Part shown: piece by piece, positions 28,774 to 30,260 of the stretch
Position numbering within the stretch: position 1 is the stretch's first letter
How the letters are laid out: each line of letters begins with the position of its first letter
Assembly: GCA_003169695.1 (NCBI GenBank)
Contig: PNAS01000057.1
Location: 71,597-135,596 of the forward strand
Source: Spartobacteria bacterium
GTDB taxonomy: Bacteria > Verrucomicrobiota > Verrucomicrobiia > Chthoniobacterales > UBA10450
Length of the DNA: 64,000 nt
Reading direction: 5' to 3'
The notes under the pieces: generated by a model
Database searches by the model: none
Told to the model about the DNA's origin: nothing
Seen by the model: only the letters and a program-made list of their open reading frames with translations
Made by a program: the position numbers and the translations under genes

Positions 28774-29332
28774 TTACTTGGAAGAAGCAATCGGATCAAC
28801 CGCGATCTGGTTGGATGCCGCAAGCGGTGCCGCCACTTCCATCTTCGACATCTCGACACGCAGATAATTCAAACGACCGGCGAGAGGATCATGCCGGGGA
28901 CACCCAGAGTTTTTCGCCGACGATCAAACCGAACAACGTCAGCCAAATCGGATTGCGAATGCGGGCACCGACGATCTTGCTGTTCAAGAGATATTCCACC
29001 TTGTGGATGACAACGAGGAAGACAAGCGCGCCGATGGCAACCTTCGGTGAAGCAAGAAAGCCGATAAACACGATCACGGTGTTGCTCACGACGTTGCCGA
29101 CAATCGGAATGAGCCCGCACAGGAACGTAAGCCCAATCACGACCGGCGCATACGGAAGCTGCGCCACGGAGACAAAGATCGCAGTCAGGACCGTGTTCAC
29201 GCAGGAGATTGTCATTTGCGCGCCGATCACCGTCGCGAAGCTGTGATAAAACTCGCGGAAACGCGCGCTGATTTTATCGCAGCAGACCGAGTAAAGGTTG
29301 TTTCGCAGCTTGTGCGATTCGCGGAAGAGATC
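28774..29332 (-). pseudogene. AI-2E family transporter, C-terminal part (3' side of inversion; two further frameshifts near its end)
   Basis: Minus strand IDLFRESHKLRNNLYSVCCDKISARFREFYHSFATVIGAQMTISCVNTVLTAIFVSVAQLPYAPVVIGLTFLCGLIPIVGNVVSN...LIVGEKLW, then GVPGMILSPVV and LNYLRVEMSKMEVAAPLAASNQIAVDPIASSK* in other frames. Confidence 0.8.
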
Positions 29333-29334
29333 GA

Positions 29335-29503
29335 TCCCGTGGATATCGAAGCGGCGGCGAAGGCGGTGACAAAGGCCGGTGAAAAAATTCTGAGCAAAGG
29401 CGAATTTTGCCCGGGCGAACCTTACCTGTTCTTCACGGATCCGGACGGTTACGAAGTCGAGATCTGGTTCGAATTGCCGACGCCAGTGGATCCGAAGCGT
29501 TGA
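29335..29503 (+). pseudogene. VOC/glyoxalase family protein, C-terminal part, inverted
   Basis: DPVDIEAAAKAVTKAGEKILSKGEFCPGEPYLFFTDPDGYEVEIWFELPTPVDPKR*. Confidence 0.85.
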
Positions 29504-29573
29504 CGAGAGGAGCGGCCGCCGTCAAAACGCAGAGTTAACCAGACAATAAAGTCCGGAAACACACCTGAGTCAG

Positions 29574-30041
29574 ATGACGAAACCCGCTCGATTCTCTTAT
29601 GCCATGCTTGCAGCCACGCTCGTCCTGGTGGGCTCGTTGCACATAGGAGCACCGTTCCTCGCTCTGCTCTTCTCCTATTTCGTGCTGACGAAACTAGGGA
29701 GGTTTATTCGCAGCAAATGGCTTGCGCTCGCGCTCTTCATTCTCATTCTCCTGGGCATTGGTTATACGGCCGGACATTTCATTCGCGCTGCCGTCTCGGC
29801 CCTGCCGAAAATTGCGGATAACTCCATTCCCGCCGCGAGTGCCTGGGCGGAGGCGCGGGAAATCCATCTGCCCTTCACGGACTTCGAAAGTTTGAAGACT
29901 ATGGCGAGGGATGCGCTCAAAGAGGAGGCGCATTACCTGGGGAACGTCGCGAACTTTGCGCGTAGCGCTTCGACCCTTTTGGTCTTCGGCATCATCGGCA
30001 TTGTCGCCGCGATCAGTCTTTTCTTTAACAGCCAGCTCGAT
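29574..30041 (+). pseudogene. AI-2E family transporter, N-terminal part, inverted
   Basis: MTKPARFSYAMLAATLVLVGSLHIGAPFLALLFSYFVLTKLGR...LLVFGIIGIVAAISLFFNSQLD; then runs antisense into the glyoxalase N-terminal part. Confidence 0.8.
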
Positions 30042-30260
30042 CAAACGAAAACCAAAGTGCGCAATTCCGCCGCGCTTTCCCGTGCGCGGAGCCTCCTCTT
30101 TGAAGACCAGAACGTCGCGGCTTCCGGGAGTCTGCGCCCGGATGAAACCAGCGTCTCGATAGACCGGCTTCACGCCGAAGACCGCTTGGTAAAAACGGAG
30201 GGACCGTTCCGCATCAGCCACCGCGAGGGCAATGTGAGTCAAGCCATGCGTTTTTACCAT
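30038..30260 (-). pseudogene. VOC/glyoxalase family protein, N-terminal part
   Basis: MVKTHGLTHIALAVADAERSLRFYQAVFGVKPVYRDAGFIRAQTPGSRDVLVFKEEAPRTGKRGGIAHFGFRLI. Confidence 0.85.

What the first reader, a model, noticed from the sequence alone, without database searches (positions are those of the whole stretch)
29329..30042. Reciprocal gene-breaking inversion: flipping ~0.7 kb restores both a glyoxalase and an AI-2E transporter gene
Seen in sequence: the minus strand at 30260 starts a VOC/glyoxalase (..GGIAHFGFRLI) that runs into antisense transporter sequence, while its missing C-terminus (DPVDIEAAAKAV..GEPYLFFTDPDGYEVEIWFE..) lies on the plus strand at 29335-29503. In mirror image, the transporter N-terminus is on plus (29574-30041, ..SLFFNSQLD) and its C-terminus on minus (29332 downward, DLFRESHKLRNNLYS..). 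X = GATCGATC at 29329-29336 and Y = TCGATC at 30037-30042 form a short inverted repeat. Reversing 29329-30042 maps the glyoxalase to 30260..29868 (393 nt, 130 aa) and the transporter to 29797..28889 (909 nt, 302 aa), both minus strand, both in frame across the joints (..HFGFRL-IDPVDIEAAAK.. and ..FFNSQLD-LFRESHKLRNN..). Chance in-frame restoration of two genes is very unlikely. It could be a fixed microhomology-mediated inversion, a phase-variable switch, or an assembly chimera; the short repeat and the additional transporter frameshifts favour a fixed rearrangement.
Basis: partly seen in the sequence, partly recalled or inferred. Interest (0 to 1): 0.9.

Follow-up and report, generated by a model that had tools for sequence, protein, structure and literature searches.

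The report
Small fixed inversion breaking two genes
In this soil bacterium a 0.7-kb piece of chromosome has flipped around, cutting through a glyoxalase-type gene and a transporter gene at once; it looks like an ordinary one-off DNA rearrangement that left two dead genes, not a switch.

Summary
Reversing 29329-30042 (any of seven equivalent breakpoint pairs) restores a 130-aa VOC/glyoxalase and a 302-aa AI-2E transporter reading frame, both on the minus strand. It is the derived state: all seven other congeneric genomes held have an uninterrupted transporter, and in each the two oppositely oriented matches to the window abut with 6-9 shared bases at the junction. Intact relatives of both restored proteins exist at 92% and 90% identity over the full query. 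The inversion joined a 6-bp inverted microhomology (GATCGA/TCGATC; random-pair chance about 0.002). The 231-aa form of the chimeric reading frame is reported on 11 contigs, the longest (267 kb) longer than the window's own (161 kb), so this is not an error of one assembly. The transporter carries two further 1-nt deletions, so flipping back would not mend it. The genome has no serine-recombinase match and no tyrosine recombinase on this contig. Best reading: a recent, probably fixed, microhomology-mediated inversion that turned two neighbouring genes into pseudogenes. A phase-variable switch is unlikely. Read-level orientation could not be tested.

The parts
29329..30042 (.). Inverted segment, 714 bp including the shared bases at its ends
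   Evidence: Reversal restores two genes; equivalent breakpoints 29329-29335 / 30036-30042
29329..29336 (.). Left joint GATCGATC (palindromic), containing the 6-bp microhomology GATCGA
   Evidence: Sequence
30037..30042 (.). Right joint TCGATC, the inverted partner of GATCGA
   Evidence: Sequence
30037..30260 (-). N-terminal part (about 74 aa) of the broken VOC/glyoxalase gene; now reads on into antisense transporter sequence as a 188-aa ORF (30260..29694)
   Evidence: Pfam PF00903 profile 2-75; ORF list
29333..29503 (+). C-terminal part (57 aa) of the VOC/glyoxalase, displaced and inverted
   Evidence: 100% to restored protein residues 74-130; full-length relatives at 92%
29574..30041 (+). 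N-terminal part (about 156 aa) of the AI-2E transporter, inverted; now the start of a 241-aa chimeric ORF (29574..30299) that ends in antisense VOC sequence
   Evidence: tblastn of congeners' transporters; ORF list
28889..29334 (-). C-terminal part of the AI-2E transporter in its original orientation, ending early at a frameshift
   Evidence: Pfam PF01594 1e-16
28770..28906 (-). Transporter 3' end carrying two 1-nt deletions relative to all congeners, displacing the last ~40 codons from frame
   Evidence: Comparison with seven congeneric genomes

Best explanation
A single recent inversion of about 0.7 kb between two 6-bp inverted microhomologies (GATCGA in the VOC gene, TCGATC in the downstream AI-2E transporter gene) exchanged the halves of two adjacent co-directional genes. 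Both were inactivated. The event was probably a replication template switch or end-joining repair rather than site-specific recombination. It appears fixed in this species, and the transporter has since, or had already, lost its reading frame through two 1-nt deletions. The two chimeric ORFs are by-products. Shown: the derived inversion, the microhomology, the extra frameshifts, and presence of the chimeric reading frame on several contigs. Inferred: the molecular mechanism, fixation and lack of function.
For: Restored frames. All 7 congeneric genomes have a continuous transporter; the + and - matches to the window abut with 6-9 shared bases (6 in five genomes, 9 in two), e.g. G002 120923-121823 and 121818-122333. 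Restored joint CAGCTCGATCTCTTCCGCGAATCG matches the closest congeners nearly base for base. Intact VOC 92% identical over 100% (P0001) and AI-2E 90% over 100% (P0121, P0122). VOC and transporter hits share contigs of identical length (4627, 4928, 79966 and 946763 bases), suggesting the ancestral adjacency. The 231-aa chimeric protein P0241, identical to the window, is counted on 11 contigs, longest 267,039, while the window's contig is 161,025. Two extra frameshifts; congeners' frames aligning elsewhere show no comparable break apart from one non-coding frame. One copy of the locus in the genome. Microhomology chance 0.0019.
Against: No reads were available, so a minority opposite orientation cannot be excluded. 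The protein database is clustered at 90%, so an intact conspecific protein could hide inside a cluster such as P0001 or P0121. Against close relatives, the transporter shows 4 in-frame substitutions at conserved sites (7 listed, 3 of them beyond the frameshift) against a mean of 1.2, and the VOC 2 against a mean of 1.2, so decay is shallow. The VOC gene does not lie beside the transporter in the seven congeners, so its uninverted state there is not directly seen.
Confidence: 0.88

Rival explanations
1. A phase-variable invertible element that switches both genes on and off together.
For: Exact reciprocal structure; both genes would be rejoined together. The genome encodes tyrosine recombinases on other contigs.
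Against: The repeat is only 6 bp with no wider similarity, against the 10-40 nt inverted repeats described for invertons (PMC11892184). No serine resolvase/invertase match in the genome; none of the 14 tyrosine-recombinase matches is on this contig. The transporter stays frameshifted after flipping. The inverted form is on 11 contigs and no intact form closer than 92% is listed.
Confidence: 0.05
2. An assembly chimera.
For: The genome is a fragmented assembly, apparently metagenomic (85 contigs); no reads to check.
Against: Two clean joints with no lost base are needed; 6 bp is too short to confuse a usual assembler (general knowledge). The same chimeric protein sequence occurs on 11 contigs, at least one of them longer than this one. 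These may still come from related samples, so they are not proven independent.
Confidence: 0.05
3. The inversion created new functional fusion proteins (241 aa and 188 aa).
For: Both chimeric ORFs are open and have start codons; a 231-aa form of one is a predicted protein on several contigs.
Against: Half or a third of each is antisense sequence; the only hit covering the 241-aa ORF is its own copy, the others listed match only the transporter part (62-74% coverage). Pfam finds nothing in the 241-aa ORF.
Confidence: 0.02

Closest known systems
Microinversions made by template switching or microhomology-mediated repair
   Same: Short inverted homology exactly at both joints, precise inversion of the segment between, no recombinase needed. 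Template switching between short inverted repeats is described as inverting spacers in yeast coding sequence (PMC8604942).
   Different: Arms are 6 bp and the inverted segment is about 700 bp; in the yeast study inversions were seen only with arms over 9 bp and the inverted spacers were a few bp long (2-5 bp substitutions).
Invertons / intragenic invertons (Jiang et al. 2019; Chanin et al. 2024, known here through the references of PMC11868660)
   Same: A DNA segment overlapping coding sequence in inverted orientation between short inverted repeats.
   Different: Repeat too short, no serine invertase found in the genome and no tyrosine recombinase on this contig, no sign of both orientations, and one target gene is broken independently of orientation.

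Membership tests
Inverton (phase-variable invertible element) | Flanking inverted repeats of about 10-40 nt | tested here: not met
   Only 6 bp, no extended similarity around the joints; range from PMC11892184
Inverton (phase-variable invertible element) | Invertase/recombinase acting on the site | tested here: inconclusive
   No PF00239 match in the genome; 14 PF00589 matches, none on contig C79; a distant enzyme cannot be excluded
Inverton (phase-variable invertible element) | Both orientations present in one population | not testable with these tools
   No reads available; the protein survey lists the inverted reading frame on 11 contigs and no near-identical intact form
Microhomology-mediated inversion | Short identical inverted sequence at both joints, beyond chance | tested here: met
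   6 bp; chance about 0.0019 for a random pair
Microhomology-mediated inversion | Derived relative to an uninverted ancestor | tested here: met
   Transporter uninverted in 7 of 7 congeners; for the VOC gene only intact homologues elsewhere
AI-2E family transporter (PF01594) | Match to the family profile over most of its length | tested here: met
   Restored protein 2.2e-18, profile 28-304 of 327; in the window itself the gene is broken
VOC/glyoxalase superfamily (PF00903) | Complete domain | tested here: met
   Restored protein 9.6e-17, profile 2-121 of 121; broken in the window

The most novel reading that the evidence does not exclude
A reversible inversion acting on only 6 bp of homology that toggles two adjacent genes between intact and chimeric forms in a natural soil population.
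Probability: 0.04. Interest if true: 0.6.

Novelty: new member of a known kind. Interest (0 to 1): 0.2.

Why it matters
It is a clean, base-resolved example of a small inversion fusing and destroying two bacterial genes, of a kind that gene callers annotate as unrelated short or fused ORFs. Such events are easily missed and can place false 'novel' proteins in databases: P0241 in the protein database is the 231-aa form of this chimera. There is no sign of a new mechanism.

Tried and rejected
Longer inverted repeats around the joints were sought with a low seed; none pairs the two joints. A second intact copy elsewhere in the genome was sought and not found; only distant VOC paralogues at 33-35% identity exist. 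General sequencing indels were considered as the cause of the frameshifts: congeners' frames align unbroken across the rest of the alignable neighbourhood, except for one frame antisense to the rpsO region (L054), so a general indel problem is unlikely. The VOC gene was sought beside the transporter in the seven congeners and not found; the DNA upstream of the transporter varies there, so the ancestral adjacency rests on shared contig lengths in the protein survey. A family-wide search found VOC relatives at 64-73% in a few genomes, none shown to be beside the transporter. Literature searches found no directly matching report of bacterial microhomology inversions within the open library.

Full report
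Observation. The window (part of a 161,025-base contig of a 4.14-Mb, 85-contig assembly; its congeners are Spartobacteria/Chthoniobacterales/Verrucomicrobia MAGs) holds four gene fragments at 28889-30260. Seven breakpoint pairs are equivalent because six bases (GATCGA / TCGATC) are shared between the joints. Pfam completes the glyoxalase domain (9.6e-17, whole profile) and extends the AI-2E match to profile 28-304 only in the restored proteins.

Polarity. The seven other congeneric genomes held all have one continuous transporter gene. Against the window each gives a + match up to window base 29334 or 29337 and a - match ending at window base 30042, and these two abut in the relative with 6 shared bases (five genomes) or 9 (two genomes), which include the microhomology. 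The restored nucleotide junction is nearly identical to that of the closest of them. The VOC gene is not next to the transporter in those genomes, but intact homologues reach 92% identity over the full length, and four VOC/transporter pairs of hits lie on contigs of identical length, two of them under 5 kb, which suggests that the pair is a real neighbourhood. The window is therefore the derived arrangement.

Artefact or real. A 231-aa protein identical to residues 11-241 of the chimeric ORF is counted on 11 contigs, the longest 267,039 bases, so the inverted reading frame was assembled more than once; these contigs could come from related samples. One copy of the region exists in the genome.

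Fixed or switching. The shared repeat is 6 bp with no flanking similarity; described invertons have 10-40 nt repeats (PMC11892184). No serine recombinase match was found in the genome, and the 14 tyrosine recombinase matches lie on other contigs. The transporter has two further 1-nt deletions near its 3' end compared with all congeners, while congeners' frames align unbroken elsewhere in the alignable neighbourhood except for one non-coding frame in L054, so these look like real decay. Flipping the segment back would thus not restore a complete transporter. No near-identical intact protein is listed, with the caveat that the database is clustered at 90%. Substitutions at conserved sites are only slightly raised, so the event is probably recent.

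Mechanism. A 6-bp inverted microhomology at both joints is unlikely by chance (about 0.0019 for a random pair) and fits template switching or end-joining repair. This step is inferred; the sequence cannot tell those two apart.

Conclusion. A real but ordinary event: a recent, probably fixed microhomology-mediated inversion that made two pseudogenes and two chimeric ORFs that are most likely without function.

Noticed in passing
28770-28906 (-): Two single-base deletions shift the last ~40 codons of the transporter out of frame relative to all congeners.
   Followed up: yes
30260-30830: The stretch between the VOC gene and the DUF4118 gene (30834-31415) has no counterpart beside the transporter in congeners; in L056 the orthologue of the DUF4118 gene lies about 130 bp from the transporter, so the VOC gene and its small neighbours are a lineage-specific gain here or a loss there.
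   Followed up: partly
G000:C43:6695-7293 and G000:C17:56399-56736 (own genome, outside the window): Phage-integrase domains in adjacent pieces, suggesting broken tyrosine recombinase genes elsewhere in the genome.
   Followed up: no
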